Part shown: positions 18,616-34,009 of the stretch, piece after piece | How positions within the stretch are numbered: the stretch's first letter is position 1 | How the letters are laid out: every line of letters begins with the position of its first letter | Source: Bradyrhizobium sp. AZCC 1693 | GTDB taxonomy: Bacteria; Pseudomonadota; Alphaproteobacteria; Rhizobiales; Xanthobacteraceae | Direction: 5' to 3' | Assembly (NCBI RefSeq): GCF_036924745.1 | Contig: NZ_JAZHSD010000001.1 | Span: forward strand, 1,798,001 to 1,862,000 | Length of the DNA stretch: 64,000 nucleotides | Position numbers and translations under genes: made by a program | The notes under the pieces: model-generated | The model's database searches: none | What the model was told of the DNA's origin: nothing | What the model saw: the letters and a program-made list of their open reading frames with translations, nothing else

Positions 18616-19161
18616 GTTTTCCTCCCATTGCTTGATCGTTCAGCGGGAGGTTTTGTGCCGGTCAACAGCAGAGACGAGCTCCCGCTGACTTTAGCTGATA
18701 ATAATTATCCCACGAACAGGCAATGTTGACAACGCGGCAACGGTGCTCTCATCCAGGAAGAACTCTGTTGCCCGATGGCAGCGGAATTTGTCCCTGACAA
18801 TCAGGCCCGGCTAGTCGCACAGTTCCTCGCGCCGTGGTGGCGCGCTTGATTTTCGGCTGCGGGTCTGCCGCGTCGCAATCTTACAAAGGTGTATATGGTA
18901 ATCAGCGGAATTAATCCCACGCAATCGATTTCATGAATTAGCTCGATTTTTCAATAGCATAGGACTAGGCTTCCTGGTCTGAGCGGTGCGCCATTCCGGA
19001 CGCGGGTTGCACTAGGCGCAGCTCTGGATCAATCACGACAAGGCGCAGGGCTGTGGCCATCGGAACGCAGCCCCCGGGACGCGGGAATGGTGCACCAGCC
19101 GGGATAAAGATAGACGCTGGAATTTGGGGAGATGCGCGATCACCTAACTGGAGGCAGACAC
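18616..19161. other. 546-base divergent intergenic region with a candidate operator
   Basis: It separates the divergent binding-protein gene (start 18615) and universal stress gene (start 19162), so promoters for both should lie here. The one clear element is a perfect 6-1-6 inverted repeat, GATAAT-A-ATTATC (18697-18709), a possible repressor site for the sugar transporter. No gene remnant was recognised; the 18.88-18.97 kb part is AT-rich for this genome. Confidence 0.4.
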
Positions 19162-19983
19162 ATGATCAAAGATATTCTTGTCAACCTGTCTTACGGGACA
19201 TCGCAAGATGGCGTTTCCAATTACGCTGTATCGGTTGCGGAGACATTCGGCGCACACATCATGGGGACCGCCTTCTATCCGGCAGTAGTCGGTGGCGTCG
19301 ACCTGTCGGCTAACTTTATTCGAGCCCAGCAAGCTGAAGCCCGAGAACACGCAGAGTCCGTGGCCACCGCGTTTGACGAGGCGACGCGTCGCGCCGGGGT
19401 TTCAGCCGAAACACGCAGAATTGAAACTGACGTCGGCGACGTACCAACCCAGTTTGCGCATATCGCGAGACGATTCGATCTTTCCGTCATTGGCCAATTT
19501 GAAAGGGACCGGGATCATCGAACCACGAATATCGTTCTTGAGGCAGCGCTGTTCGAATCCGGAAGACCGGTGCTCATCGTACCTTTTATTCAGAAGGATC
19601 GCCTCAAACTCGATCATATCATGGTGTGCTGGGATGGCAGCCGGGCAGCCGCCCGAGCGGTCGCCGATGCCATGCCGTTTCTTACCCGCTCCGGCACGAC
19701 GAGTATTGTTGTTGCCGACACTCAGAGCGCCAAAAGCGCAGACCTTCCGGGTGCGGATATCGCGACCCATCTGTCCCGTCACGGAGTAAATGCCACGATT
19801 GAGCGCATTCCCGTCAGCAAGATCGATGTTTCAAATACAATCCTGTCATATGCAGCCGATGCAGGTGCCGATCTCATTGTCATGGGCGGGTACGGGCATT
19901 CCCGGCTGCGGGAATTTATTCTTGGCGGGACGACACGTGGTATGCTTGCCTCGATGACCAAACCGACATTGATGTCGCACTGA
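19162..19983 (+). CDS. Universal stress protein, tandem UspA domains
   Basis: 273 residues, twice the single-domain length, so two Usp domains. The ATG at 19162 is taken because GGAGG lies 7 bases upstream. The C-terminal domain has the nucleotide-binding signature MGGYGHSRLREFILGGTTR near residues 242-260; the first domain lacks a clear copy. Cytoplasmic stress proteins of this family bind ATP or other ligands and are often induced by oxygen limitation or starvation. It is a single-gene unit, divergent from the sugar transporter and converging on the operon that ends at 20107. Confidence 0.88.
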   Translation: MIKDILVNLSYGTSQDGVSNYAVSVAETFGAHIMGTAFYPAVVGGVDLSANFIRAQQAEAREHAESVATAFDEATRRAGVSAETRRIETDVGDVPTQFAHIARRFDLSVIGQFERDRDHRTTNIVLEAALFESGRPVLIVPFIQKDRLKLDHIMVCWDGSRAAARAVADAMPFLTRSGTTSIVVADTQSAKSADLPGADIATHLSRHGVNATIERIPVSKIDVSNTILSYAADAGADLIVMGGYGHSRLREFILGGTTRGMLASMTKPTLMSH

Positions 19984-20106
19984 TCAACCGACGAGCATCA
20001 ATGTATGTCGCGACACATCGCAAAATGTCGGCGCAACGCTGAACGTTTCCTCAATTGACGGCCCGACCACCAGATTCCGGGAGAACCAATCCTTACGACC
20101 ACGCAA

Positions 20107-22731
20107 TCATCGATCGGATGCAATGGCGACAGGAATACGCCGGATATCCGGATTCATGACATTGCCGTTGACCGCGATGACGGCAAGCATGGTGTACTGG
20201 CCAGCCGGCAGCCGGCCGCCCAGATCGATCCGGAATGTCGCGTCGTCGCCGAGCAACGCGACATCGGCGAGCACGACTCGATCCTTGTCATCGGTCACCA
20301 CATAGCGACACTGCGGTGCGGCACGATTGCGCACGACGGGTGCGATCAACGGCAATGGCGTCCGCACCAGGCGATAGCTTCGCTGGAATCTATCGATCAT
20401 TTCGATCTCGCCCGAGAGCGTGACGCGGTCGCCGTTCCATTCCACCTTGGTGACATAGCCGTGCCGCGGGATCGCGTAGGCGTCGTATGATCCCACGCCC
20501 AGCGGGTAGGTCAGATCCCGGAAAGCCTCGAGCGCGACATTGTCGGCCGACCATTTCTTCAGCCGGTACGGTCCATTGGTGACCAGGAAGTGGCCGTGCT
20601 CACGGTAGAAGACCGCGAGCGCCGCCCATCGCTTGCGCGCCTCGTCGGCGGTCACCAAGGATCGCAGCGAGGCGGGACGGTATGCGTCGCGCTCGAATGC
20701 CTCGACCAACGGCACGAGCTTGCGTTTGAGTTCGTCAGAGCGGACCAGGTCGAGCCACTCGACATTGCGGCGCATGGCCTCTGCTTGCGAGAACGCCGCC
20801 CAGCCCCGGCTGACCGCCTCCTCCATGAGCACGACCAGATGCCACGGCAGCGTGCTCCAGGGCGGCGCCGCCAGAGCCTCCTGGTCTGGATTCTCCAGCA
20901 CCACCGTCAGATAGACGTCGATGACCAGCAACTCGCGAACGAAACTGACATCGCCGACGCGGAAGCTCTTGGAGGTGATGTCCGCGTCCGCGACCCGCAA
21001 TCCCGCAAGTGCCCGGCGCAGGGGTTCCGTTGCGGCGTCGACGACGGGGTCGTAATGCCCCTCATCGCCCTCGCGGCGAACGCCCCAGCGATACGCGAAT
21101 ATATAGGCATAGAGCAGATCGGCGACGGTCATGCGTGAACCGTCGTGGAAAGCCGAGCCGAGCACACGATAGGTCAATTTCGCAGCAGCGGACGTTTTTG
21201 CGCCGATCGGCTGCAGCCGGCCGTCGCCCGGCTCAGGCAACACCGCGTCAGCAGGGACGTGGATCACCTCCGTCACGGCGGATGGCTGGGCGGATTCACG
21301 CTGCTCGACGATGGGCTCCGCTGTGATGGACAGGCCAACAAAGGTGTAGACGACCATGAGCGCGGTCAGCGGAACTTGCGAACGAAGCGCGGCTCCACGT
21401 ACCGCTATCACACGCATCGCCTTGGTATGGCCGAGGTAGACCGCCGTGACATGGCCCGTCACGATCGCCGCAACCGCCGCGTACCAGGCAAAGCGCGCTC
21501 CGACGATCGCGATATCAACGCGGTAGCCGGCTGTGCCGAAGAGATTCCAGCCTTTGCCGAACGGATCGGACGCGAGCGGCACGATGTACTGGCCCTGGAT
21601 CAACAGGAACACCAGATAATGTGCCACGTGATAGCCGATGGCGATCGGGACGAGCGTCAATGCGAAGCTGCGGGCAAGCCCCATCGGCGAGCGAGCCATA
21701 GGCGTCGGCATGATCGCGCAGATCGCCAGGTAGGCGCCGAGGAACAAAAGCCAGAACCCCACGAGGCCGGCTGTCTTGATCGCGACCGGGGCGTGCTCGC
21801 CCAAGCCGGGGAGCGTGGCGCGAAGCCAGCTTTCGAGGTTCGACCATGTCGAGGTGCCGATGAGCCCGTCATAAAGCACGGTCGAGAGCAGGAGCAACAC
21901 GAATGCCATCATGGACGTCGAGACGGGCTCGTCGTCGAGCAGCCCTGCCCCGAATGGTCGAAGCAACAACTTCCGCCCTTGCGGCTGAACCTTCGCCTGA
22001 GTTGGCGCAAAACGGGCGAAGGTGCCGAACACGATGGTGAACACCTCGCCGTGCTGCATCCAGATGTCACGACCGAACACGAACATGCCGATCACGGTGA
22101 GGATCGAATACGCGGCGGCGAAACCGGCAATGTGAGCTGGCACGGCGGGGCTTGGGTAGACAAGCTCGATCCACGCAAAGGCGAGCAGCAGCAAGCACGC
22201 CGGCCAGACACCGAGCACCGGCCAGTACGGCAGCCGTCGCGACAGTTCGGTGCCGGTGGCCAGCCGATAGAGCCGCTCCGCCCCTTCGAACAGCGTCCGC
22301 CACGGATTGATCAGCTGCCACAGGTCTCCAGCGAAGGCCGAAACATAGGCAAGGCCGACCCAGAAGATGATCCACACAAGCGTTGGCGCAAGGTTCCGGT
22401 ATGGATTCTGATCGCCGATGAACCCGGCAAGTACCGTGACAATGAAAACGCCAAGCGCGACGAGCCGGAGCAGGAGAACAACACCAGGCTGTACGATCAG
22501 CCGGCCGGGCGCGGTGGCGAGCAGATCGACATGCGGGCCGCGACGGGTGACGGGGGCATGACGAACGAACAGCCCGAAGACGACGAATGACAATGCGACC
22601 GCGGCGGCACCTCCGAAGAGATAGAGCGAAAGCGGCAGCGGCAGATCATAGCGCTGGCCGAAGCCGTGGGCGGCAGCAGGTGCCGCGGTGCCGAGAGCGA
22701 CACAGGCCGCTGCTGCAAGCGTCCGCAACAT
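20107..22731 (-). CDS. Polytopic membrane protein with C-terminal solute-binding-like domain (unit C, unknown function)
   Basis: 874 residues from the ATG at 22731, seven bases after the cupredoxin-like gene; in-frame ATGs at 22779 and 22815 are alternatives without better ribosome sites. A signal-like start (CVALGTAAPAAAHGFG) leads into about ten membrane segments over residues 30-465. From about 487 there is a soluble domain homologous to residues 385-763 of the protein at 27834-30125; shared motifs are VPADA-x-x-PEPG, APPWS, LVTNGPYRL, TYP-x-G and LPAG-x-YT. That domain recalls family 5 (peptide/nickel) binding proteins (DGSRMTVADLLYAY, VTNGPYRLKKWS) but is not clearly one. Last gene of the nine-gene unit. 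Probably a membrane partner of the exported proteins encoded beside it; no function is assigned. Confidence 0.75.
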   Translation of the reverse strand: MLRTLAAAACVALGTAAPAAAHGFGQRYDLPLPLSLYLFGGAAAVALSFVVFGLFVRHAPVTRRGPHVDLLATAPGRLIVQPGVVLLLRLVALGVFIVTVLAGFIGDQNPYRNLAPTLVWIIFWVGLAYVSAFAGDLWQLINPWRTLFEGAERLYRLATGTELSRRLPYWPVLGVWPACLLLLAFAWIELVYPSPAVPAHIAGFAAAYSILTVIGMFVFGRDIWMQHGEVFTIVFGTFARFAPTQAKVQPQGRKLLLRPFGAGLLDDEPVSTSMMAFVLLLLSTVLYDGLIGTSTWSNLESWLRATLPGLGEHAPVAIKTAGLVGFWLLFLGAYLAICAIMPTPMARSPMGLARSFALTLVPIAIGYHVAHYLVFLLIQGQYIVPLASDPFGKGWNLFGTAGYRVDIAIVGARFAWYAAVAAIVTGHVTAVYLGHTKAMRVIAVRGAALRSQVPLTALMVVYTFVGLSITAEPIVEQRESAQPSAVTEVIHVPADAVLPEPGDGRLQPIGAKTSAAAKLTYRVLGSAFHDGSRMTVADLLYAYIFAYRWGVRREGDEGHYDPVVDAATEPLRRALAGLRVADADITSKSFRVGDVSFVRELLVIDVYLTVVLENPDQEALAAPPWSTLPWHLVVLMEEAVSRGWAAFSQAEAMRRNVEWLDLVRSDELKRKLVPLVEAFERDAYRPASLRSLVTADEARKRWAALAVFYREHGHFLVTNGPYRLKKWSADNVALEAFRDLTYPLGVGSYDAYAIPRHGYVTKVEWNGDRVTLSGEIEMIDRFQRSYRLVRTPLPLIAPVVRNRAAPQCRYVVTDDKDRVVLADVALLGDDATFRIDLGGRLPAGQYTMLAVIAVNGNVMNPDIRRIPVAIASDR

Positions 22732-22738
22732 GGCGGCG

Positions 22739-23122
22739 CTATTGCGGATAGACCTCGACAAGGACAAGCGGTGGCTCATGATGGGAAGGGCTGCCTGCGC
22801 GGTCGCGCGCATCATGGAGGTGGATGGGGAAGCGTCCGGTCGCGCGTGCCGTGAACTTCATTTCGGCGATCGTGCCGGCCTCGACTTTCTGCTCGATGTC
22901 ATAGCCGTGCAGGTGCAGGGTCAATGGCTGGTCCGTGCCCCAGCGCAGCTTGACTACGTCGAGCTGTTTGACGCGGATCAGGCGCATGTTCTGCGCCACC
23001 TTCCCGTGCTCGATCTTGAGGTCGAACGTCAGCTCCGCGGCTTGCGCGCTTACGCTCGGCGCGAGCGCACCCACCATTGGTATCAAGAGGCGTCGGCCCA
23101 GTGTAAGCGGAATTCGCAGCAT
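22739..23122 (-). CDS. Exported cupredoxin-like protein lacking the copper-ligand cysteine (unit C)
   Basis: 127 residues from the ATG at 23122, which has GGAG 7 bases upstream; an ATG at 23140 would add six residues. A signal peptide ends near SAQA at residues 25-28. The rest is a small beta-sandwich of the cupredoxin-like/EfeO type: LHLHGYDIEQ followed by GRFPIHLHD and SHHEPPLVLVEVYP. The position where type 1 copper proteins have Cys between strand and loop is Ile-His here, so a blue copper site is unlikely; the cluster of seven histidines may bind another metal form. It lies 18 bases after 23141-24289 and 7 bases before 20107-22731, so it is tightly linked to both. Confidence 0.72.
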   Translation of the reverse strand: MLRIPLTLGRRLLIPMVGALAPSVSAQAAELTFDLKIEHGKVAQNMRLIRVKQLDVVKLRWGTDQPLTLHLHGYDIEQKVEAGTIAEMKFTARATGRFPIHLHDARDRAGSPSHHEPPLVLVEVYPQ

Positions 23123-23140
23123 GGACCTGCTCCGACCCAT

Positions 23141-24289
23141 TCATCGACGCGGCTTGGACTCGACATCCGCGATCCGGTTGAACACCCAGTTCTCGTCATA
23201 TGGCGACGGCACAGCTGCCGGATCGCCGAGCGCGAACCACGTCAGGCGGCCGAACGGGTCCGTAAAGCCTGCGATCGGATTCCACGCTGCCTGCGGCCGC
23301 CCGTCGACCCCAAGAGCGAGCCAGCCATTCCAAGGAAAATCCTTGAGCTTCACCGTGCGGATGAACATCGGCGAATTGAAACCGTCGTGGGCGTCATACG
23401 CGATGTTCTCAATGCCAGCCGAGAATTCGGAATTGAAATATTCCCGCTTGACAGTGTAACCGGCAACGGTCTTGTGGCAGCTGCCGACGAGCATGCCGAC
23501 GAGGCCACGTTCCAGATTGATGCGCTCGACCGCGCCGTTATAGTCACCGGTCCGCAGGCGTTCGACATCGGATTCGATGCGACGCAGCCGCTCTGGATCG
23601 ACAATTGCATCCCCGAGCAGCCGATAGGCGGCGAACCAGCCGGTCCTGACCCAGCGCGGACCAAGCCAGCCGTTCAACGCCTCCCTCGCCGAGGCCACAA
23701 GGTCGGCGGCGTTCACCTCATGGATCGCGACATCCCAGTCGGAATCGCCTGCCTGCCATTCGGCGCGAACGAGGCTTCTTGCGAGCGCGCCTACCGCCCT
23801 CACCTTCAACTCGCCGACGATCGCACCGGTTGCCTCAGTGAGGCTGCCGAGAAGGCGCGCCTTCGCGGCTGCCGCCAGATCGACATGGTTGAGAAAATCG
23901 CCGTGAAACGGCGTGACCGGATAGGGATGCGTGATCAGCTCACTGGCCTTGCCACCGATCTCGCGGATCGCGGCCCGGGTAAGCGCACAGATGGACGCCT
24001 CGTCCTTCGCCAGCGGCGATGCCGGATTGACGCGAACAATCACAAACGAGCCAAACGACTCGACAGCGGTGATGGTCTCGGGCATCGCACCAGCAAATCG
24101 CGGCGTACCGCCAACATAAGCATGCATCTTGCCGTCGCGCAGGAGGTCGGCCGCTCGCTCGGACGCCACCGTCGCGATCTCGATCTCATGGGGATAATAG
24201 GACGGATAGACCGGCAACTCGTGGCCGCTGCGGGCCACGGTGATCGCGATGGACGTCATCGCGGCGATGAGAAGGCTGCATCTGGTCAT
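23141..24289 (-). CDS. Exported protein homologous to the N-terminal half of 27834-30125 (unit C, unknown function)
   Basis: 382 residues from the ATG at 24289. After a signal peptide the mature start GHELPVYPSYYPHEI matches GHEVPYYPSFYPQEI of the 27834-30125 product. Further shared blocks are the pair HPYPVTPFHGDFLNH and HRYPITPYHADYIGH, IENIA, LKD-x-PWNGW and AWNP-x-AGFTD. Two cysteines are conserved between the pair (ICALTRA/RCRAIEN and GSCHKTVAGY/RGCDRAVIGY), suggesting a periplasmic disulfide. No known family is recognised. It follows livF by 56 bases and ends where the cupredoxin-like gene starts. It probably acts in the periplasm with its neighbours. Confidence 0.72.
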   Translation of the reverse strand: MTRCSLLIAAMTSIAITVARSGHELPVYPSYYPHEIEIATVASERAADLLRDGKMHAYVGGTPRFAGAMPETITAVESFGSFVIVRVNPASPLAKDEASICALTRAAIREIGGKASELITHPYPVTPFHGDFLNHVDLAAAAKARLLGSLTEATGAIVGELKVRAVGALARSLVRAEWQAGDSDWDVAIHEVNAADLVASAREALNGWLGPRWVRTGWFAAYRLLGDAIVDPERLRRIESDVERLRTGDYNGAVERINLERGLVGMLVGSCHKTVAGYTVKREYFNSEFSAGIENIAYDAHDGFNSPMFIRTVKLKDFPWNGWLALGVDGRPQAAWNPIAGFTDPFGRLTWFALGDPAAVPSPYDENWVFNRIADVESKPRR

Positions 24290-24345
24290 TTGCCATCCGG
24301 AACGTTCAGACACGGCGTTTCGCAGTCGTGTCGGCTTGCGCGCAA

Positions 24346-25071
24346 CTAGCCGCGCAACGCCTTCATCACTTTTTCGTCGGCGAGCGCTTCCCTCGGCGAC
24401 CCGTGGAAGATGATCTCGCCACGGTCGATGGCGTAGAGCCGGTCGCCGATGCGCGTCGCCGCACCCAGATTCGATTCCGCCATGAGGATGGAAACGCCCA
24501 TCGCCTTGATTTTCATGACCGCCTCGGTGAAGCGATTGACCACGACCGGCGCCAGGCCCTCGAAGGCTTCGTCGAGCAACAACAGCGACGGCGACAGCAT
24601 CATGGCGCGCGCGATCGCCACCATCTTGCGCTGACCGCCGCTGAGGTGCAAGCCTTGACGCTGCAGCAGGTTCTGCACTTCGGGAAAGAGGCTGAACGTC
24701 TGGGCTTCGGGGTCTACCCGCTGACCGCCGTTACGGCGCTTGGCGACCTCATCGCCGAGCCAGCGACTGATCATCAGGTTCTCGCTCACCGACAAATCAG
24801 GAAAAACCCCGCAATCCTCGGGCGAATAGCCGATGCCACGTTTCGCCCGCTCGTGCGGCGGGAGCCTCGTCACGTCCTCGTCATCGAACAGGATCTGTCC
24901 GGCCCGGACGGGGAGAAATCCCATGATGCTCTCGATCGTGGTGGTCTTGCCCGCTCCGTTGCGCCCGACGAGGCATACCACTTCCTCCTTGTCGACGCGC
25001 AGCGACACGCCGTTGAGGATGTGGGCCGGGCCGCGGTAGGTGTCGATCGCATTGACATCGAGCACGATCAA
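24346..25071 (-). CDS. Liv-type ABC transporter ATP-binding protein, LivF family (unit C)
   Basis: 241 residues. Walker A is GRNGAGKTTT near residues 36-45, the signature LSGGQRKMVAIARAM, and Walker B LLLLDEAFEGLAPV, where the usual Pro after the catalytic Glu is Ala. The EGLAPV ending and the AESN switch region resemble the LivF of unit B (12759-13406). It overlaps the livG gene by 4 bases. Cytoplasmic ATPase subunit of the importer embedded in the nine-gene unit. Confidence 0.88.
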   Translation of the reverse strand: MIVLDVNAIDTYRGPAHILNGVSLRVDKEEVVCLVGRNGAGKTTTIESIMGFLPVRAGQILFDDEDVTRLPPHERAKRGIGYSPEDCGVFPDLSVSENLMISRWLGDEVAKRRNGGQRVDPEAQTFSLFPEVQNLLQRQGLHLSGGQRKMVAIARAMMLSPSLLLLDEAFEGLAPVVVNRFTEAVMKIKAMGVSILMAESNLGAATRIGDRLYAIDRGEIIFHGSPREALADEKVMKALRG

Positions 25072-25841
25072 TCCTTTCGTGAGAAGGCGTCGGTACCGGA
25101 AGAGCCGATCAGGATCATTGCGACCTGCTCGTTCTTCCTGATCTCGGCGGGGGTACCTTGCGCAAGAATCGCGCCCTGGTGCATCACGACGATGCGATCG
25201 GAATATTTGAACACGACGTCCATGTCGTGCTCGATGACCACGGCTGTTATGCCCTCGCCGCGCACGACCGAAGCGATCGTGTCCATGATCTGGCCCTTGT
25301 CGCGCGTGCTCACCCCGCTCGTGGGCTCGTCGAGGAACAGGAGCTTGGGCCGCAGCGCATAGGCGAGCGCTACGTCGAGCAGCTTGCGCTCGCCTTGCGC
25401 GAGGCCGCGCGCAAGCTCGTTGTGCTTCCCGGCGAGCCCGAATTGGTCGAGCACCCCGTCGGCTTCCCGCGTCACCTTGCCGTCGCGGCGGGCGAGCGCC
25501 GCAATGTTGCGGGTCTTGCCTTCGCGGGAAAAGATCGCCAGCGCGACGTTGTCGAAGGCGGTAAGGTCGTCGAACAGATTTACGAGCTGGAAGCTGCGCG
25601 CAATTCCTGCCTTGACGCGCTGGGTCACCGAGGCGTTGCTGACGTCCTGGCCCTGGAAGATGATTTTTCCGGAATCGGCGCTGTAATATGCGCTCACGAT
25701 GTTGCAGAACGAAGTCTTGCCGGCCCCATTGGGGCCGACCAGCGATATGAACTCGCCCTCCTCAATGGTCAGATTGACGTCGTCGACAGCATGCGTATCG
25801 CCGAAGTACTTCTTGAGATGGACCGTCTCGAGCAGGCTCAT
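25068..25841 (-). CDS. Liv-type ABC transporter ATP-binding protein, LivG family (unit C), atypical signature
   Basis: 257 residues from the ATG at 25839-25841, which overlaps the livM stop; a frame extending to 26879 is a shadow of livM. Walker A is GPNGAGKTS, Walker B LLFLDEPTSGVSTRD, and the switch histidine VIEHDMDVV. The signature is LAQGERKLLDVALAY instead of LSGGQ, like that of unit B, which supports a shared subfamily. Pairs with the LivF at 24346-25071. Confidence 0.88.
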   Translation of the reverse strand: MSLLETVHLKKYFGDTHAVDDVNLTIEEGEFISLVGPNGAGKTSFCNIVSAYYSADSGKIIFQGQDVSNASVTQRVKAGIARSFQLVNLFDDLTAFDNVALAIFSREGKTRNIAALARRDGKVTREADGVLDQFGLAGKHNELARGLAQGERKLLDVALAYALRPKLLFLDEPTSGVSTRDKGQIMDTIASVVRGEGITAVVIEHDMDVVFKYSDRIVVMHQGAILAQGTPAEIRKNEQVAMILIGSSGTDAFSRKD

Positions 25842-26869
25842 GAGGTCCCCCTGGTAAACCTGGTCGCAAGGCGCGCGGCCGTCCCCACGATGCCCGACGG
25901 CAGCGCTAACACCAGGACCACGAGCACCACGCCGAGCAGGAGCTGCCAATATTCCGTGCTCGCGACCGCATAGGTCTTGAGATAGTTGAACACCACAGCG
26001 CCGACGATCGGCCCGGTGAACGTACGGAACCCGCCGAGCACGCTCATGAACACGATCTCGCCCGAGAACGGCCAATAAAGGATGTCGGGCGTGGTCAGCC
26101 CATTGAGCGGAACCCAGAGGATGCCGGCAAGACCGGTGAACGCGCCCGATATCACGAAGGCGATCCAGCGGTAGCGCCGCACTGATATGCCGACGAAGCT
26201 CGCGCGCGTCTCGTTGTCGCGAATTGCCTGCAGCGCTTTGCCGAACGGCGAGTGCACAACGACCCACATGATGACCGTCGCCAACGCGAACAGGCCAAGT
26301 ACATAATAATAGTAGGCGAAAACGAAGCGTTGGAACGAGCCGGGGCCGGCGAAGTTGACGAGACCGCCGAGCAGCGTGAGCTTGGCAGAGGCGACGCGGA
26401 TGCCGTCGGTGCCGCCGGTCACCCAGAAAAACTTGAAGGCAAGGCTCCACAACACCTGCGACAATGCCAGTGTCAGGATGCTGAAGAAGATGCGCGTGTG
26501 CCGTACGCACACGAACCCGAACAGCGCGGAGATGAGCAGCGTGCCCAGGAGCCCGCCGGCGATGCAGAGCTCCATGGATTGCGCGCCGAGGTCGCGTACG
26601 ATGAACGCAACCGTATAGGCGCCGGCGCCGAAATAGGCAGAATGGCCGAACGACAAGAGTCCGGTATAGCCGAGCAGCAGATTGAAGCCGAGCGCCGCGA
26701 TGGCCATGATCAGACCATAGGTGAGCAGCACCGTCTGGTAGGGATCGACCAAACTCGGCAGCATCGCGAGCACAAGGAGTATTGCGAGCGCGACCACAGC
26801 CGGCCGCCAAGCAGACGGGCCAGTGCTCGTGATCGCGGCTTTTTTTGCGACGGTGAGGCTCATCGTCAT
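25838..26869 (-). CDS. Branched-chain amino acid-type ABC permease, LivM family (unit C)
   Basis: 343 residues with a somewhat long N-terminus (about 25 residues before the first membrane segment). LivM signs are GYTGLLSFGHSAYFGAGAYT near residues 68-87, RDNETRASFVGI, and FSGEIVFMSVLGGFRTFTG near 268-286. Start overlaps the livH stop by 4 bases and its end overlaps livG. Channel half for the unit C importer, together with 26866-27756. Confidence 0.88.
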   Translation of the reverse strand: MTMSLTVAKKAAITSTGPSAWRPAVVALAILLVLAMLPSLVDPYQTVLLTYGLIMAIAALGFNLLLGYTGLLSFGHSAYFGAGAYTVAFIVRDLGAQSMELCIAGGLLGTLLISALFGFVCVRHTRIFFSILTLALSQVLWSLAFKFFWVTGGTDGIRVASAKLTLLGGLVNFAGPGSFQRFVFAYYYYVLGLFALATVIMWVVVHSPFGKALQAIRDNETRASFVGISVRRYRWIAFVISGAFTGLAGILWVPLNGLTTPDILYWPFSGEIVFMSVLGGFRTFTGPIVGAVVFNYLKTYAVASTEYWQLLLGVVLVVLVLALPSGIVGTAARLATRFTRGTS

Positions 26870-27756
26870 GCCCTCCCAAACAGTCCGGTCGGGCGAATGA
26901 GCAGGACCGCGGTCGCGATCAGGTAGAGCACGGCAAGCTCGATCTCAGGGAAGAACTGGATGCCGGCGGTGCGGACGAGGCCGACGATCAGTGCACCGGC
27001 CAGTGCGCCTTCGAGGCTCCCGAGCCCGCCGATCACCACGACAACGAACGCCAAGATGAGGGCCTCAATGCCCATGCCGAGCACGGCGGCCTGCGCCGGC
27101 ACCACGACCGCGCCGCCCAACCCTGCCATGAAGCAGCCGATGGCGAAGGCTTGCACGTAGACACGGCTGACATTGATCCCGAGCGCTGCGGCCATGCGCC
27201 GATCCTGCGAAGTGGCGCGCAGGATGACGCCGAACTTGGTACGGTAGATGAACCACCACAGGCCGAGAGCGGCGATCAGCCCAATGGCGATGACGAACAG
27301 GTTGTAGGTCGGATAGAGCAGCCGGCCGATCGGGATGCTGCCCATGTGATCCATGATCGATCCGGCGGTGAGCGGCGTGCCGCCGAACAGGAACTTCATG
27401 GCGTCTTCGAGGATCATGAGCAGGCCGAACGTGACCAGCAGATGGTACTCCTCCGGCCGTCGGTAGAGCGGACGCAGCAGCGTGGGCTCGATTACCGCGC
27501 CCACGACCGCGATCGCGACGGCGCCGACGGGCAGCAGGAGCAGGAGGCCGGCAAGGCCGAGCGTACCGCTCGCCGCATGGCCGACCGCCCCGCCGACGAC
27601 CCAGGCCGAGACGTAGGCACCGAGCGCATAGAGCGTCCCATGGGCGAGATTGACGATGCGCATGACACCATAGATGAGGCTCAGGCCCGCGGCGATCAGA
27701 AACAAAACCGCTGCGTAGAAAAATGAATTGAGCAATTGGATGATGAAGATCGTCAT
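26866..27756 (-). CDS. Branched-chain amino acid-type ABC permease, LivH family (unit C)
   Basis: 296 residues with LivH hallmarks: IAAGLSLIYGVMRIVNLAHG near residues 21-40, LYALGAYVSA, and VVVIGGLGSLEGALAGALIV near 239-258. It begins 77 bases after the end of the large exported-protein gene 27834-30125 and overlaps livM. No stem-loop or terminator was seen in that gap, which supports one transcript for the whole unit. Substrate unknown. Confidence 0.88.
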   Translation of the reverse strand: MTIFIIQLLNSFFYAAVLFLIAAGLSLIYGVMRIVNLAHGTLYALGAYVSAWVVGGAVGHAASGTLGLAGLLLLLPVGAVAIAVVGAVIEPTLLRPLYRRPEEYHLLVTFGLLMILEDAMKFLFGGTPLTAGSIMDHMGSIPIGRLLYPTYNLFVIAIGLIAALGLWWFIYRTKFGVILRATSQDRRMAAALGINVSRVYVQAFAIGCFMAGLGGAVVVPAQAAVLGMGIEALILAFVVVVIGGLGSLEGALAGALIVGLVRTAGIQFFPEIELAVLYLIATAVLLIRPTGLFGRA

Positions 27757-27833
27757 CGTTCTTCCTCACGCGATCTGTGGCGTCTCAGATCTTCTGACGC
27801 GAACTGCGGCGCCTCGGATTTCCCTCCACTGTC

Positions 27834-30125
27834 TCAGTTGCTCCGAAAGTCCATGCGGCCGATGGTCGGATTGATCGTGTTGCCGTCGAGAAAGATAGCC
27901 GTGAAGACTGTGTAATTGCCTGCCGGGAGATTCGGCGGCAGCGACACGGCAAAGCGTTCGTCGCCTTCCCGGCTCGCGCCCCCGGCTGCGACCACCTTGC
28001 CAGTCTCGCCGAGGAGGACATACCGTGCCACCGGCCGGATTGGCAGCATCTCGCGCAGCGTGTCGCGCTTGAGCGGCACGCGAACGATACGGCGATCGCG
28101 CTGCTGCTTGAGCGCGATCTCGGCGTCGGCCGTCACCAGAATGCGATTGCCGATGTGCTCGACCCGCGTCACGAACGCCTTGGCTGGATAGGCATAGAAG
28201 TCGAACGTGCCAAGGCCAACCGGATAGGTGAACTCGCGAATGACGTCGAATGTGTAGACGTCGGGCGAGAAGCTCCTGAGCCGGTAGGGACCATTGGTCA
28301 CGAGCAAGTGGTTGTTGGCTTCGACGAATTGATCGAGCGCCTGCCAGCGTGCGGTCGCGGCTTGCGCGCTCACCAGGCTTTCGAGCGCCGCCGGTCGGTA
28401 GCCGGCCGTGGCGAATTCCTTGATCAACGCGCGCAGCTTGTTGCGCTGTGCAGGATCGCGCGCGAGGTCGAGCCACGGCAAATTGCGCCGCTTGGCCTCG
28501 CTTTGCGAGAAAGCCGCGATTTCGCGCTCGACGGCGGCTTCCATCAGCGCCAGCACGTGCCACGGCATCGAGCTCCACGGCGGCGCCACCAGCGCATCCT
28601 CATGCTCGTCGGTCGGGATGGCGTCGACATAAACCTCCACTATTGGCGAGCGATAGGTGAAGACGAGATCGGCGATCGGGAGCTTCGATTCCTCCACGCG
28701 AATGACGCGGACACCCTTGAGGCGGCCCCGCATCAGGTTGGTCGCGGCGGAAACCTCGGCATCGAAGGTCGCGGCGGTCGGCGAGCTACCCCATCGGTAC
28801 GCAAAGGCGTAAGGGTAGATCAGGTCGGCGGTCTCCATTTCGCTGCCGTCCTGGAATGACGATGCCAGGACGCGGTAGACGACTTTGGTCATCGCGCTCC
28901 CGCCAACGCCGATCGGAACGAGCCGGCCGGTGCCGGGCTCCGGCACGAGGGCATCGGCGGGGACACGGATGGATTGCCGCGTCGATTGCTCCGTAGGCCG
29001 AACCTCCGCGCGATTGGGAGCCCACAGACTGTTGTACGGGACGGCTAAAAACGCATCGTCGCCGACGATCGCCCACACCAGCCGGCCGGGCGCGTCCGTG
29101 AACCCGGCAACCGGGTTCCAGGCTGCGGTTGCGCGGATGTCGATGCCCAGTCGGAGCCAGCCATTCCATGGCAGGTCCTTGAGCTTGAGCGTCCGCAGGA
29201 CGACGGCTGAGTTGAATCCGAACTGCGAGTCGACCGCTATATTCTCGATCCCGTTGGAAAAGTCGTCGCTGTAGAACTCGCGCCGGAGCCGATAGCCAAT
29301 CACCGCGCGGTCGCAACCGCGGGTCAGCTCCGTTATCAGGTCGCGTGCGATGTTGAGGTGATCAGCGGGGTCTCTGTAATCCGCTTCGACTAGCCGCCCA
29401 TAGAGCTCGTCGGCGTGTTTACGATCAACCTCGCCGCTGACGGCGGGATACAGCAGGTGATAAGCTTGGAACCAGCCCTCCTTGATCCAGGGCGGTGCTG
29501 GCCAGGCATTAAAGCCAACATTGGCGGCGCGCAGCACCTCGTTGACCGCAACCTCGTCGAAGCGGACGTCCCAGTCTGTCGGATGAAGCGCAAGTCGGTG
29601 AAGTACCATGTCCTCGCTGCCGGCGTCTTGCGCGCGCACGGTCACCGGGGCATCGACGTCAGCGGTAATCAACGCGGAGGGTTTCGTGTCTGCGCCGCGA
29701 TCCGCATGACCGATGTAGTCCGCATGATACGGCGTGATCGGGTAGCGGTGCGGAACCACGTCCGGATCTGACACCAGAGCATTCGCGGCATTTTCGATCG
29801 CGCGACAGCGCGCTTCACGCACCTGCACGCGCTGCGGATTGACGCTGACGGTGATGAATGAGCGCAGTGAAACGACTGACTTGAGGTGCGACGGCGTTTC
29901 TCCTGAAAACTGCGGGGTGGCGCCGAGATAGGCGTGGAGCGGGTCCTTGGCGTTGCTGAATTCTCGGGCCGCCGCTCCGGGATCGAGCGGCTCGATGCGG
30001 ATTTCCTGCGGGTAGAACGAGGGATAGTACGGCACCTCATGCCCGGCCTGCGCCGCCGGCGCAGTGGCGCACAGCAGCATCGCTGCGAGCGTGCCGCTTT
30101 GCATGAGGGGTCTTCGCACGGACAT
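27834..30125 (-). CDS. Large exported two-domain protein, natural fusion of two domains encoded separately downstream (unit C, unknown function)
   Basis: 763 residues from the ATG at 30125, which has a GAGGG ribosome site; a longer frame to 30206 lacks one. A signal peptide ends near APAAQA before GHEVPYY. Domain 1 (about residues 30-380) is homologous to the whole 23141-24289 product. Domain 2 (about 385-763) is homologous to the C-terminal 390 residues of 20107-22731 and has family 5 binding-protein-like features (VTNGPYRL). No membrane segment follows the signal, so it is probably free in the periplasm. It sits between the binding-protein gene (84 bases upstream) and livH (77 bases downstream), so it is produced with the importer. 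No known family was recognised. Confidence 0.75.
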   Translation of the reverse strand: MSVRRPLMQSGTLAAMLLCATAPAAQAGHEVPYYPSFYPQEIRIEPLDPGAAAREFSNAKDPLHAYLGATPQFSGETPSHLKSVVSLRSFITVSVNPQRVQVREARCRAIENAANALVSDPDVVPHRYPITPYHADYIGHADRGADTKPSALITADVDAPVTVRAQDAGSEDMVLHRLALHPTDWDVRFDEVAVNEVLRAANVGFNAWPAPPWIKEGWFQAYHLLYPAVSGEVDRKHADELYGRLVEADYRDPADHLNIARDLITELTRGCDRAVIGYRLRREFYSDDFSNGIENIAVDSQFGFNSAVVLRTLKLKDLPWNGWLRLGIDIRATAAWNPVAGFTDAPGRLVWAIVGDDAFLAVPYNSLWAPNRAEVRPTEQSTRQSIRVPADALVPEPGTGRLVPIGVGGSAMTKVVYRVLASSFQDGSEMETADLIYPYAFAYRWGSSPTAATFDAEVSAATNLMRGRLKGVRVIRVEESKLPIADLVFTYRSPIVEVYVDAIPTDEHEDALVAPPWSSMPWHVLALMEAAVEREIAAFSQSEAKRRNLPWLDLARDPAQRNKLRALIKEFATAGYRPAALESLVSAQAATARWQALDQFVEANNHLLVTNGPYRLRSFSPDVYTFDVIREFTYPVGLGTFDFYAYPAKAFVTRVEHIGNRILVTADAEIALKQQRDRRIVRVPLKRDTLREMLPIRPVARYVLLGETGKVVAAGGASREGDERFAVSLPPNLPAGNYTVFTAIFLDGNTINPTIGRMDFRSN

Positions 30126-30209
30126 CACGACCCTCGAGGCAACGCCGGCCCTGAAACAAACCGACCACGCCCTCGCGGAACGAAGGCATGGTTGGTGGAT
30201 GGGCAAGCT

Positions 30210-31586
30210 TCAGGCCACCTGTGGCCAAGTCTCCTTGATCCAATTGTAGGTCGACGTCGGATCGTTGTGCGAGGTGCCCGGCTTCGGCCAGTTCGGCGGC
30301 GCCGTGATGTTGCGGATCGGGATTGTGATCATCCTGCCCGGATCGAGTATCTGGAACGGGTACTCGGCCACGTTCTTGCTGAACCCGGTCACCGCGTCCT
30401 TGTAGCCCTGGTGATTGTCGGGCCGGATGTAGAGATAGCCCGCTGCGGTCTCGAAATACATGCCTTCGAGCTGGCTGATGATCGCCTCTTCGTCCGGCCA
30501 GCCGCCGACGAGCCTGTTCGCTTTCTCGACCGCCGTACGGTACATATGAAGCGTGTGGTACGCGCCATCCGACTGGAAGTTCGGATACTCGTTCCAGCGC
30601 TTGAAATACTTCTCCACGAAGGTCTTGTTGGCCGGCCAGCGATTTCCCGGCGGGAAGGTGAAGTAGTAGTTGGAGTGGACGCCAGCGATGACACCTTCCG
30701 GGTGATCCTTGCCGATGGCGTGCGGCGCGACGCCGAAGGCGATCGTGCTGGCGAACTTGGCAATGTTGAACATGCCGTAGCGCAGCGCCTGTTTGTAGAG
30801 CGCCACATAGTCACCGCCCCACACCGACGACATGATCAGGTCCGGATTCGAGGACATCGTTTTTGTGATGTGCGCCGTGAAGTCGGTCGTGCCGAGCTTC
30901 GGCCAGGCTTCCGATACGACCTCGGCGCCGGGCACCAGTTTCTTGTAGGCGATCATGAAGTGGTCGAAGGCGTTGCGGCCGTAAGAGTAGTCGGGATGGA
31001 TGTGGGCGATCTTCTTTGCGGTTGGCCAAGTCTGCGCGGCCGCGACCGCGCAGGTCACGCCGTCGGCCGACTGGATGTTGGTGATGCGGAACGCGAACTT
31101 GGGGTTCGGCACCGCCTTGTCCCACAAGAAGTCGGTGCAGCCGTCAACGAAGATGGTGAGCAGACCGAGTTCCTCGGCGACCGGTCCGAGCGCGGGGGTA
31201 TTGCCGCTCGATATGACGCCGGTGAACATGTCGATCTTCTCGGAGAGCTTCATGCGGCGAAGCTCTTTCACGTTGGCGTCGGTGCCGGCGTTCTCGTCCG
31301 CCGTGATGGTCTCGATCTTACGTTTGCCGAGAATTCCGCCCTGCGCGTTGATCTCCTCGGCGGCCAGCATGTGGCCCTTGAGCGAGGGCTCTCCGAGCAC
31401 TGCCGCGGGGCCGGTAAGGAAGGTCATGTGGCCGAACTTGAGCGGGGTGGCGGGAATATTCCCCTTCGGAGGCCTGTCGACCTGCGCCACGGCCGGAACA
31501 ATCGCCGGCACCGTTGCTGCCGCGGCCCCTACCGTAATACCTAGACTATTCAGGAAATTTCTGCGATTCAGCTGCTGCTGCGTCAT
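30210..31586 (-). CDS. Periplasmic substrate-binding protein of Liv-type ABC transporter (unit C), Tat-type signal
   Basis: 458 residues from the ATG at 31584-31586, with a strong ribosome site (GGAGGA). The N-terminus NRRNFLNSLGITVGAAAAT is a twin-arginine signal (RRNFL), unusual for a LivJ-class protein. The mature part is a type I periplasmic binding protein: LKFGHMTFLTGPAAVLGEP, then YSYGRNAFDHF near residue 222 and SSVWGGDYVALY near 272. The WGGD block is shared with the unit B binding protein. Long for the family (usually about 370-400). First gene of the nine-gene unit ending at 20107. Confidence 0.88.
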   Translation of the reverse strand: MTQQQLNRRNFLNSLGITVGAAAATVPAIVPAVAQVDRPPKGNIPATPLKFGHMTFLTGPAAVLGEPSLKGHMLAAEEINAQGGILGKRKIETITADENAGTDANVKELRRMKLSEKIDMFTGVISSGNTPALGPVAEELGLLTIFVDGCTDFLWDKAVPNPKFAFRITNIQSADGVTCAVAAAQTWPTAKKIAHIHPDYSYGRNAFDHFMIAYKKLVPGAEVVSEAWPKLGTTDFTAHITKTMSSNPDLIMSSVWGGDYVALYKQALRYGMFNIAKFASTIAFGVAPHAIGKDHPEGVIAGVHSNYYFTFPPGNRWPANKTFVEKYFKRWNEYPNFQSDGAYHTLHMYRTAVEKANRLVGGWPDEEAIISQLEGMYFETAAGYLYIRPDNHQGYKDAVTGFSKNVAEYPFQILDPGRMITIPIRNITAPPNWPKPGTSHNDPTSTYNWIKETWPQVA

Positions 31587-31762
31587 GGACCGTCCTCCGT
31601 TTCGAGGGTCGGGTGCGACGCTCCCGCCACGCGCGGAGCACACACCTCCGGCCTTTTCGTGGCTTATTACAACATCTTAGTCTCGCGGCGCCTCCGAGTA
31701 AATCAACTTCCGCCGATTTCGAGCGCAATCGCGAACCGGCGATGTCGGAGCTTAACGCGAGG

Positions 31763-31975
31763 CTACACCTTGAAGCGTGGATCGAGGCAAGCTGTCGCCA
31801 AACAAATTGAAGGCGAATACTGCAATGCTGATGGCAACGCCCGGGACAAAATCATCCACGGCGCCTGACGGTAAAAGTCAGCGGCGTTACCCGACAGCAT
31901 CAGGCCCCAGGCCGCGGTCGGCTCCTGCACGCCGAGCCCCAGGAAAGACAGCGATGCCTCCGCCAGGATCGCTGA
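31763..31975 (-). pseudogene. C-terminal remnant of a dipeptide-type ABC permease (DppC-like), frameshifted
   Basis: The minus strand reads [17 protein letters not shown], then [15 protein letters not shown] and APWMI, ending LDPRFKV and a stop at 31763-31765. This matches the C-terminus of the intact dppC-type gene at 45475-46377 ([21 protein letters not shown]). Between APWMI and LDPRF the expected [19 protein letters not shown] is present only in a shifted frame, so two frameshifts have occurred. The match starts abruptly at about 31975. A decayed fragment of a different dipeptide-type transporter. Confidence 0.65.
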
Positions 31976-32124
31976 ACATCGATCAGGTCTCTCGCACCTT
32001 CCCTGCGCGTCAGGGCAATGTGCCGACGCGGGCTCTGGAACCGATTGATCTCAGCGTCGGCGATAATGACTTCGTCACCATCCTCGGCCCGTCGGGCTGC
32101 GGAAAATCAACGCTGCTCCTTCTC
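31966..32124 (+). pseudogene. N-terminal fragment of a nitrate/taurine-type ABC ATPase
   Basis: About 53 codons read [16 protein letters not shown] and then [20 protein letters not shown] with Walker [10 protein letters not shown]. This is the start of a NrtD/SsuB/TauB-type ATPase. It is cut right after STLLLL, where the sequence changes into an IS630-type transposase in the same frame. Its start meets the DppC-like remnant on the other strand. No signature, Walker B or helical domain is present, so it cannot function as an ATPase. Confidence 0.65.
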
Positions 32125-32478
32125 GACGGTCCGATGGACGGAGTATCCTTCCTCGCCTGGGTCGAGCAGATGTTGGCGCCAACCTTGCGGCCAGGCGACA
32201 TCGTCGTCATGGACAATCTGTCCGCCCACAAGGTCGCGAGCATCAGGCAAGCTATTGAAGCCTGCGGCGCCGAACTCCACTATCTGCCGCCTTACAGCCC
32301 CGATCTCAATCCGATCGAAAATGCCTTCGCCAAGCTCAAGGCGCATGCGCGAAAGTCCGCCGCGCGAACCCTCGACGCACTCGATCGAGCCGCCGCCAGC
32401 GCATTGCGACGCTTTAAATCCGGCGAATGCGCTTCGCTCACGCCGGATACGGCTTGGATTGAGAGGAACCTGCTCTAG
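32125..32478 (+). mobile_element. 3' fragment of an IS630-family transposase gene
   Basis: The frame reads [15 protein letters not shown], then [36 protein letters not shown] and a stop at 32476-32478. These are the second Asp (MDNL) and the third acidic residue (DLNPIE) of the DDE catalytic core of IS630-type transposases. The first catalytic Asp and the N-terminal helix-turn-helix are missing, replaced by the ABC ATPase fragment in frame. It is a dead element end; terminal inverted repeats could not be identified with confidence. Confidence 0.75.
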
Positions 32479-32529
32479 GCTAGCCGATCACTAACTCTCG
32501 CGCACAATTCCACGAACCCAAGGTCCGCT

Positions 32530-33234
32530 TCAATCCGCGCCGAGATATGCCGCCTTGACCTTCGGATCGGACAACAGCGCCGCCGCTGCGCCGGTCGATG
32601 CGATTCGGCCGGTCTCCAGCACGTAGCCGCGGTCGGCGATTTCGAGCGCCGCGGTGACGTTCTGCTCGACCAGCAGCACGGTGATGCCGCTCGCCTTCAG
32701 CGCCACGATGGCGGCGAGGATCTGGTCGACGAGAATGGGCGACAGCCCCAGCGACGGCTCGTCGAGCAACAGCAGTTTGGGTTTTCCCATCAGCGCGCGG
32801 CCGATTGCCAGCATCTGCTGCTGACCGCCGGACAACCCGCCGGCGGCGAGGTGGCGCTTCTCGCGCAGCACCGGGAACATCTCAAACACCCGCTCGCGGT
32901 CCTGCTCGATCTCGCTGTCGCGGCGCATGTAGGCGCCGAGCCGCAGATTATCCTCGACGCTCAAGGGGCCGAACACCTGCCGCCCCTCCGGCGACTGCGT
33001 CATGCCGCGCTCGACGCGGCGGTGCGGTGGCAATTTGTCGATGCGCGCGCCGAGGAAGCGGATTTCGCCTTCGCTAATCGGCTGCACGCCCGACAGCGCG
33101 CGCAACAGCGTGGTCTTGCCGGCGCCGTTGGAGCCAATCAGCGCCACCACCTCGCCTGTGCGCACCTCGAGGCTGACGCCCTTCAGCACCTCGATGCGAC
33201 CGTAGGCGCTGTGTAGGTTCGAAACCTCAAGCAC
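32530..33234 (-). CDS. Liv-type ABC transporter ATP-binding protein, LivF family (unit D)
   Basis: 234 residues, standard length. Walker A is GSNGAGKTT near residues 34-42, the signature LSGGQQQMLAIGRAL, Walker B LLLLDEPSLGLSPI, and the switch region VEQN. It overlaps livG by 8 bases and is the last gene of the unit D operon (37283 to 32530). It ends 50 bases from the IS630 fragment, so the operon was not cut by that insertion. Confidence 0.9.
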   Translation of the reverse strand: MLEVSNLHSAYGRIEVLKGVSLEVRTGEVVALIGSNGAGKTTLLRALSGVQPISEGEIRFLGARIDKLPPHRRVERGMTQSPEGRQVFGPLSVEDNLRLGAYMRRDSEIEQDRERVFEMFPVLREKRHLAAGGLSGGQQQMLAIGRALMGKPKLLLLDEPSLGLSPILVDQILAAIVALKASGITVLLVEQNVTAALEIADRGYVLETGRIASTGAAAALLSDPKVKAAYLGAD

Positions 33235-34009
33235 GTGCCGCCTCCCCCGCCCCGTGTTTGCCGAGATAGGCCTCCAGCACCGCCGGGTTGTCGCGCACTT
33301 CGCGCGGCGTACCTTCTGTCAGCGGCCGGCCGCGCTCCAGCACCAGGATCCGGTCAGAAATCTTCATCACCAGCTTCATGTCGTGCTCGACCAGCACCAC
33401 CGCGATGCCTTTTGCAGCAACCCGGCGCACCAGCTGATCGATCTCTTCAGTTTCCACCGCGTTGCAGCCGGCCGCCGGCTCGTCGAGCAGCAGCACGCGC
33501 GGCTCGGCGGCGAGCGCGCGGGCGATTTCGAGCCGCTTACAGGCGCCGTACGGCAGCGATCCGGCCAATTGATCGGCGCTGCCACGCAGGCCCACACTGT
33601 CGAGCAGTGCCAGCGCCGCCTCGCGTGTTGCGCGGTTCTGCCGCGTCACCGACGGCAGCCGGAACAGGTCGGAAAGCAGATGACACCTTTCGCGCAAATG
33701 CCGTCCGACCATCACGTTCTCGGCGGCGGTCATGCGCTGGAAAATCTGTAGGTTCTGGAAAGTGCGCGACAGGCCAAGGGTGGCTAGCGCCTCCGGCGCA
33801 CGCCCGGTCACGTCTTCTCCCATCAGCTCGACGCGGCCCTGATCCGCCTCGTAGAGACCCGACACCACATTGAACAGCGTGGTCTTGCCTGCGCCGTTCG
33901 GCCCGATGATGGAGAGAATCTGGCCCGCATCGACAGCGAAGCTGACGCCGTCGATGGCTTTGATGCCGCCGAACGAAATTCCGATGTTGCTGGCAGCCAG
34001 GATCGTCAT
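33227..34009 (-). CDS. Liv-type ABC transporter ATP-binding protein, LivG family (unit D)
   Basis: 260 residues from the ATG at 34007-34009, which overlaps the livM stop; a longer frame to 34033 is unlikely. Walker A is GPNGAGKTT, and the signature SLPYGACKRLEIARAL is a common LivG variant. Walker B is VLLLDEPAAGCNAVE and the switch histidine VEHDMKLV. Pairs with the LivF at 32530-33234. Confidence 0.9.
   Translation of the reverse strand: MTILAASNIGISFGGIKAIDGVSFAVDAGQILSIIGPNGAGKTTLFNVVSGLYEADQGRVELMGEDVTGRAPEALATLGLSRTFQNLQIFQRMTAAENVMVGRHLRERCHLLSDLFRLPSVTRQNRATREAALALLDSVGLRGSADQLAGSLPYGACKRLEIARALAAEPRVLLLDEPAAGCNAVETEEIDQLVRRVAAKGIAVVLVEHDMKLVMKISDRILVLERGRPLTEGTPREVRDNPAVLEAYLGKHGAGEAARA

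What the first reader, a model, noticed from the sequence alone, without database searches (positions are those of the whole stretch)
20107..31586. Nine-gene unit coupling a Liv-type importer to four exported or membrane proteins of unknown function
All nine genes run on the minus strand with gaps of at most 84 bases, four of the junctions overlapping or nearly so: binding protein, two-domain exported protein, LivH, LivM, LivG, LivF, exported protein, cupredoxin-like protein, membrane/solute-binding-like fusion. The four extra genes are unlike normal transporter companions and share domains with one another. This may be a periplasmic handling or oxidation/capture system feeding a dedicated importer. 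It is the best candidate in the window for an undescribed system.
Basis: partly seen in the sequence, partly recalled or inferred. Interest (0 to 1): 0.88.

Follow-up and report, generated by a model that had tools for sequence, protein, structure and literature searches.

The report
Split, rearranged receptor beside a transporter
A nine-gene bacterial transport unit, found in several distant bacteria, pairs an ordinary ABC importer with a solute-binding fold whose two halves have been swapped in order and, in a second copy, cut into two proteins, one of them fused to a membrane protein; what it imports is unknown.

Summary
The nine minus-strand genes are real, tightly packed and conserved as a unit. 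Of 52 related bacterial loci, 14 carry all nine in order, 12 the first six, 6 lack the two-domain gene, 3 have the liv genes convergent, 15 are cut by contig ends, one is a stub, one lacks liv genes. It is patchy: 12 of 265 genomes of the genus.

Best reading: a Liv-type importer with a second, family-5 capture module, partly split and membrane-tethered, perhaps handling a copper-linked solute. Anatomy well supported; ligand, copper and hand-over inferred. New variant of a known kind.

The parts
30210..31586 (-). Liv-type periplasmic solute-binding protein (Peripla_BP_6), twin-arginine-like signal
   Evidence: 187 bits, cut-off 31.7, scanned from 31643; nearest solved chains are Liv/Tat-type binding proteins
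30164..30192 (-). 13-pair stem-loop in the gap after the SBP gene
   Evidence: stem of 9 or more pairs after the SBP stop in 35 of 46 related loci
27834..30125 (-). 790-aa ORF (ATG at 30125 gives about 763 aa): exported, circularly permuted family-5 solute-binding protein with C-terminal Ig-like beta sandwich; predicted mature N-terminus Gly-His-Glu (codon of Gly at 30042-30044)
26866..27756 (-). LivH-type permease (BPD_transp_2)
25838..26869 (-). LivM-type permease (BPD_transp_2)
25068..25841 (-). LivG-type ATPase
   Evidence: scanned from 25790, first 17 residues left out
24346..25071 (-). LivF-type ATPase
23141..24313 (-). 390-aa exported protein = homologue of the N-half of the 790-aa protein (second half of the family-5 fold); predicted mature N-terminus Gly-His-Glu
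22739..23140 (-). 133-aa exported cupredoxin-like protein, conserved HLHGY and a C-terminal His cluster
   Evidence: all family matches weak
20107..22731 (-). 902-aa ORF (874 aa from the ATG at 22731): predicted mature N-terminal His, about 11 membrane helices, then the homologue of the C-half of the 790-aa protein (first half of the family-5 fold) and an Ig-like domain

Best explanation
A dedicated Liv-type ABC importer (SBP + LivHMGF) whose operon also carries a family-5 (Opp/Dpp/Nik-type) solute-binding module in two paralogous forms. Form 1 is one exported chain with the two halves of the fold in swapped order (790 aa). Form 2 is the same two halves on two chains: the free 390-aa half, and the other half carried by the about 11-helix membrane domain of the 902-aa protein. 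SHOWN: the unit and its conservation, homology of the halves between the three proteins, and (by structure comparison and archaeal relatives) the swapped order. INFERRED: the 390-aa chain docks on the 902-aa chain to rebuild a binding cleft at the membrane surface; this module captures or conditions a solute too bulky for, or in a form not taken by, the ordinary Liv SBP and hands it to LivHM. INFERRED MORE WEAKLY: the solute or the handling step involves copper (His-rich cupredoxin-like partner; predicted N-terminal His or X-His on the three module proteins).
Confidence: 0.42

Rival explanations
1. The family-5 halves are a sensor or gate, not a capture module: the 902-aa membrane domain reads occupancy of the periplasmic cleft and adjusts the importer or another membrane process.
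For: Membrane domain is large and conserved, more than an anchor needs; it exists alone beside other Liv operons. The stem-loop after the SBP gene suggests that only the Liv SBP is made in bulk (inference).
Against: Form 1 (790 aa) has no membrane part and accompanies the same importer alone: in 25 of 26 genomes searched (21 Rokubacteria, 3 ANGP1, 1 Actinobacteria MAG) the 902-aa profile found the soluble half but no full membrane fusion; one of the 25 (G758) has two weak membrane-domain matches elsewhere.
Confidence: 0.2
2. A redox step: the membrane protein and the cupredoxin-like protein oxidise or reduce the solute (or its metal) before import.
For: Distant relatives of the membrane domain carry Fer4_5 and weak NapH matches (2 tested, L132 and L138) and lie beside NapA/NapH-like genes; L058's copy keeps a Cys-rich insert.
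Against: In 18 other membrane fusions examined, 17 have no CxxC in that loop and one has a single CxxC; no oxidase family matches over cut-off in the window; no cupredoxin match in the 12 six-gene loci.
Confidence: 0.15
3. A copper or metal-chelate importer: the Liv permease takes up a metal complex, and the module strips or delivers the metal.
For: Predicted N-terminal His or X-His on three proteins, HLHGY in 20 of 20 and a C-terminal His cluster in most cupredoxin-like proteins; nickel- and haem-binding proteins are among the family-5 matches of the archaeal relative.
Against: No metal-related gene or receptor seen to recur beside the unit; X-His is GDE in 2 of 120; no family match for copper proteins is firmly over cut-off.
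Confidence: 0.17
4. Loose association: the extra genes hitch-hike with the liv genes and have no joint function.
For: Patchy: 12 of 265 genomes of the genus; L058 lacks liv genes.
Against: Same order across Alphaproteobacteria and, for six genes, Rokubacteria; in all 12 matching genomes of the genus both halves of form 2 are neighbours.
Confidence: 0.06

Closest known systems
Thermococcus kodakarensis OppA (PDB 7fi3) and family-5 solute-binding proteins (OppA, DppA, NikA)
   Different: Halves in swapped order; in one copy on two chains; fused to a membrane domain; placed with a Liv-type instead of an Opp-type permease; below Pfam's SBP_bac_5 cut-off
Liv/HAAT branched-chain amino acid and urea/amide importers (LivKHMGF, UrtABCDE)
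   Same: SBP, two BPD_transp_2 permeases, two ATPases
   Different: All five are far below the Urt and Liv cut-offs of NCBIfam; extra family-5 module
Thaumarchaeal (Nitrosotalea and kin) OppA-like proteins, loci L064-L084
   Same: Same permutation, shown for L065; C-half 26-30% identical
   Different: OppB beside it in 20 of 21 and OppC in 19 of 21 loci, the missing ones at contig ends; one chain with a C-terminal hydrophobic tail
Stand-alone about 500-aa membrane proteins with predicted N-terminal His
   Same: Membrane domain of the 902-aa protein, 52-55% identical in 13 aligned; some beside other Liv operons
   Different: No family-5 half; no cupredoxin match among the genes listed around 18 of them

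Membership tests
Liv/HAAT-type ABC importer | Peripla_BP_6 SBP, two BPD_transp_2 permeases, two ABC ATPases together | tested here: met
Liv/HAAT-type ABC importer | Amino acid or amide substrate | not testable with these tools
   no ligand assay
Urea importer Urt | NCBIfam cut-offs for UrtA-E | tested here: not met
   90.5 of 492.75, 172.1 of 250.3, 148.5 of 296.2, 172.5 of 304.1, 203.7 of 285.8 bits
Family-5 solute-binding protein (Pfam SBP_bac_5) | Match over Pfam's gathering score | tested here: not met
   none for 790 and 390 aa; 10.5 of 32.4 bits for 902 aa
Family-5 solute-binding protein (fold) | Both halves of the fold present in the 790-aa protein | tested here: met
Family-5 solute-binding protein (fold) | Canonical order of halves | tested here: not met
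   for the 790-aa protein, for an archaeal relative: order swapped
Cupredoxin | Pfam Cupredoxin_1 or Cu-oxidase_2 over cut-off | tested here: inconclusive
   window copy 16.4 of 20.4 bits; L059 copy 20.4 of 20.4; L023 and L063 copies below
Cupredoxin (type 1 copper) | Conserved Cys copper ligand | tested here: not met
   no Cys after residue 45 in 16 of 20; by eye the other 4 have Cys at differing places, partly in upstream extensions or a frame-shifted tail
CopC/CopD copper proteins | CopC fold with copper ligands; CopD membrane domain | tested here: inconclusive
NapH/MauN ferredoxin-type membrane protein | Cys-rich iron-sulfur insert | tested here: not met
   no CxxC in the loop in 17 of 18 fusions; window copy also without it; L058 has it

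The most novel reading that the evidence does not exclude
A naturally split, circularly permuted solute receptor: two separately exported half-folds assemble on the outer face of the inner membrane, tethered by a membrane copper protein with an N-terminal histidine, and feed a permease class (Liv) that normally uses an unrelated receptor fold; one importer thus served by two receptor classes.
Probability: 0.3. Interest if true: 0.82.

Novelty: new variant of a known kind. Interest (0 to 1): 0.62.

Why it matters
It explains several large 'hypothetical protein' families at once (at least 957 and 2101 relatives, whose candidate lists were capped), offers a natural example of circular permutation and of a receptor cut in two within one operon, and gives a testable case of an ABC importer with two receptor classes. 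If copper is involved, it would be a new link between copper handling and ABC uptake.

Tried and rejected
Urea or branched-chain amino acid importer in the strict sense: below every NCBIfam cut-off listed. Plasmid-borne relatives of the 790-aa protein: none found. Structured RNA: no Rfam match at gathering score in 19000-34000. Promoters inside the unit: 3 sigma-70-like sites, none on the minus strand, chance expectation 2.4. Enzymes beside the unit as a clue to substrate: in the 14 loci listed no flanking gene, ABC-transporter genes and antisense ORFs aside, recurs in more than 3 other loci. Fold of the membrane domain: Foldseek found nothing under E 0.001 and most VIA-align rows lay in the C-terminal Ig-like domain; this does not show a new fold. 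N-half profile against the PDB: only a chance hit, E 0.36. hhalign of the whole N-half against the archaeal family found only the last 119 columns; the in-register alignment appeared after trimming to a stretch chosen by eye, so the shuffle test is not blind. Folding energy of the SBP-790 gap against simple shuffles was uneven: z from 0.5 to -7.0 in the window and 18 loci; the stem count was made after that.

Papers: nine searches (listings only) and passages of PMC2588589 and PMC6588880, neither about this. No paper on a permuted or split natural family-5 binding protein was found in this library, which holds openly licensed papers only. The 7fi3 paper was not seen.

Recalled, from no call: the -3/-1 signal-peptide rule, copper binding by N-terminal His and Gly-His motifs, that 5za4 and 2grv are family-5 proteins, the use of stem-loops to raise SBP levels in ABC operons, and the naming by eye of transposase, NapA/NapG, DppC, OppD/OppF and FixH-like genes.

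Full report
OBSERVATION. The window is bases 1798001-1862000 of a 7.6-Mb single-contig genome; the nearest named full-length relative at this locus is in Bradyrhizobium sp. URHD0069 (93%). The nine minus-strand genes exist as described, with gaps of at most 84 bases and three 4-base overlaps among the liv genes. Pfam and NCBIfam recognise the five transporter genes; the other four have no match over cut-off.

CONSERVATION. One scan of named genomes with the 790-aa family found 88 relatives, of which the best 80 were kept as 73 loci; 52 (L012-L063) are bacterial, 21 archaeal. Read with the nine window proteins: 14 have all nine genes in order (L012-14, L016-21, L023, L026, L029, L030, L032; L030 is cut at both ends, in L016 the last gene is in two pieces). 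12 have SBP-790-LivHMGF and no 390-aa gene or cupredoxin match in the 1.9 to 6.7 kb held beyond LivF (L025, L031, L033, L034, L036, L039-42, L045, L046, L052; in L034, L039 and L052 the SBP gene is cut by the contig start, and in L039 the end of the 790-aa gene is rearranged). 3 (L050, L051, L055) have SBP-790 with LivHMGF convergent. 15 are cut by contig ends (L015, L022, L024, L027, L028, L035, L037, L038, L043, L044, L047-49, L053, L054): 13 fit as far as they go, while L028 and L035 have 394 and 337 bases after their last matched gene without a match to the next. 6 (L057, L059-63) have SBP-LivHMGF-390-(cupredoxin)-902 without the 790-aa gene, the cupredoxin not being detected in L062. L056 is a stub with cupredoxin and 902; L058 is the exception. 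Because the scan started from two peptide patterns, the sample is not random. In the genus 12 of 265 genomes match, own genome included; in all 12 the matches to the two halves of form 2 lie close together, and 9 also have a full 790-aa match. In the class sample 3 of 385 genomes match, own included. In the 14 loci listed no flanking gene recurs in more than 3 other loci, ABC-transporter genes and antisense ORFs aside.

THE MEMBRANE DOMAIN. Residues about 60-503 of the 902-aa protein hold 11 hydrophobic segments. The same domain occurs alone in about 500-aa proteins, 52-55% identical in the 13 aligned; a sample of the phylum has relatives in 45 of 398 genomes, own included. Of 18 such loci read, 8 (L124-L129, L133, L134) lie beside a different Liv operon, 10 do not. 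In L124-126 a gene that is NAPRTase by Pfam in L124 is adjacent, and in L127 molybdopterin-hydroxylase and AA_synth genes are. More distant members carry a Cys-rich insert (7 of the 18), with Fer4_5 and weak NapH matches in the two tested. The predicted mature N-terminus is His in 118 of 120 listed proteins of the 902-aa family by motif, and the two misses read HGFGQRF; 115 have small residues at -3 and -1. It is found in 95 of 119 listed in the separate search with the membrane domain; the 8 misses printed begin inside the domain. In the 790-aa family the end is X-His in 117 of 120 (100 with small -3/-1; of the 3 misses two read GDE and one lacks the start), in the 390-aa family GHE in 21 of 22 by motif, the miss reading GGHEW. 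The cupredoxin-like protein keeps HLHGY in 20 of 20. These are possible metal sites; none was shown to bind metal.

L058 AND ROKUBACTERIA. L058 has M55 D-aminopeptidase, canonical SBP_bac_5 and a BPD_transp_1 (DppB-like) permease by Pfam, a DppC-like gene by eye, then the 390 and 902 genes, the latter with the Cys-rich insert; no liv genes on the 11-kb contig. Of 26 genomes behind such loci (22 Rokubacteria, 3 ANGP1, 1 Actinobacteria MAG), 25 match the 902-aa profile only over its soluble half, as expected of the 790-aa gene, apart from two weak membrane-domain matches in G758; L058's genome has the full 902-type match. So the module can be served by two classes of permease, and either form can stand alone.

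EXPRESSION. After the SBP stop a strong stem-loop is kept in place though not in sequence: stem of 9 or more pairs in 35 of 46 loci, 0 of 46 in a control inside the SBP gene; after the 790-aa gene 2 of 41 (control 5 of 41), after LivF 3 of 32 (control 5 of 32). By analogy with other ABC operons (recalled) this would let the SBP be made in excess.

VERDICT. A real and conserved system. The anatomy (a permuted, and in one copy split, family-5 module with a Liv importer) I hold at about 0.8; the capture-and-hand-over mechanism with split assembly at about 0.4; copper at less. No paper describing it was found in the searches named.

Noticed in passing
window 31777-32478 (+): ORF that reads as a fragment of an ABC ATPase running into an IS630-like transposase tail (named by eye), just upstream of the unit.
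   Followed up: no
L124-L129, L133, L134: Stand-alone membrane proteins, most with a predicted N-terminal His, next to a second kind of Liv operon; NAPRTase-like gene adjacent in L124-L126, molybdopterin hydroxylase genes in L127.
   Followed up: partly
L058:122-9418: Rokubacterial operon: M55 D-aminopeptidase, canonical family-5 SBP, DppB-like and DppC-like permeases, 390-aa and 902-aa homologues; its membrane domain keeps a Cys-rich insert.
   Followed up: partly
L064-L084: Thaumarchaeal OppA-like proteins, with swapped halves in the one examined closely (L065), beside OppB/OppC.
   Followed up: partly
L130, L132, L138: Distant membrane-domain relatives with Fe-S motifs beside NapA/NapG/NapH-like genes (by eye except L138) and, in L132 and L138, a small FixH-like protein (by eye).
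   Followed up: partly
L057:8955-9878: An extra LivM-like gene (40%) between LivF and the 390-aa gene.
   Followed up: no
L059:7031-8374: A transposase-like ORF (named by eye) between the cupredoxin and the 902-aa gene.
   Followed up: no
L016:11836-14509; G889:C34: The 902-aa gene lies in two pieces, probably broken.
   Followed up: no
whole genome G000; window 32530-34033: 63 matches to Peripla_BP_6 at E 0.001 or better, a large stock of Liv-type binding proteins; two further Liv-type ATPase genes (by eye) lie just upstream of the unit.
   Followed up: no
L014:18590-20721, L018: OppD/OppF-like ATPase genes (named by eye in L014, by position in L018) directly downstream of the 902-aa gene.
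   Followed up: no
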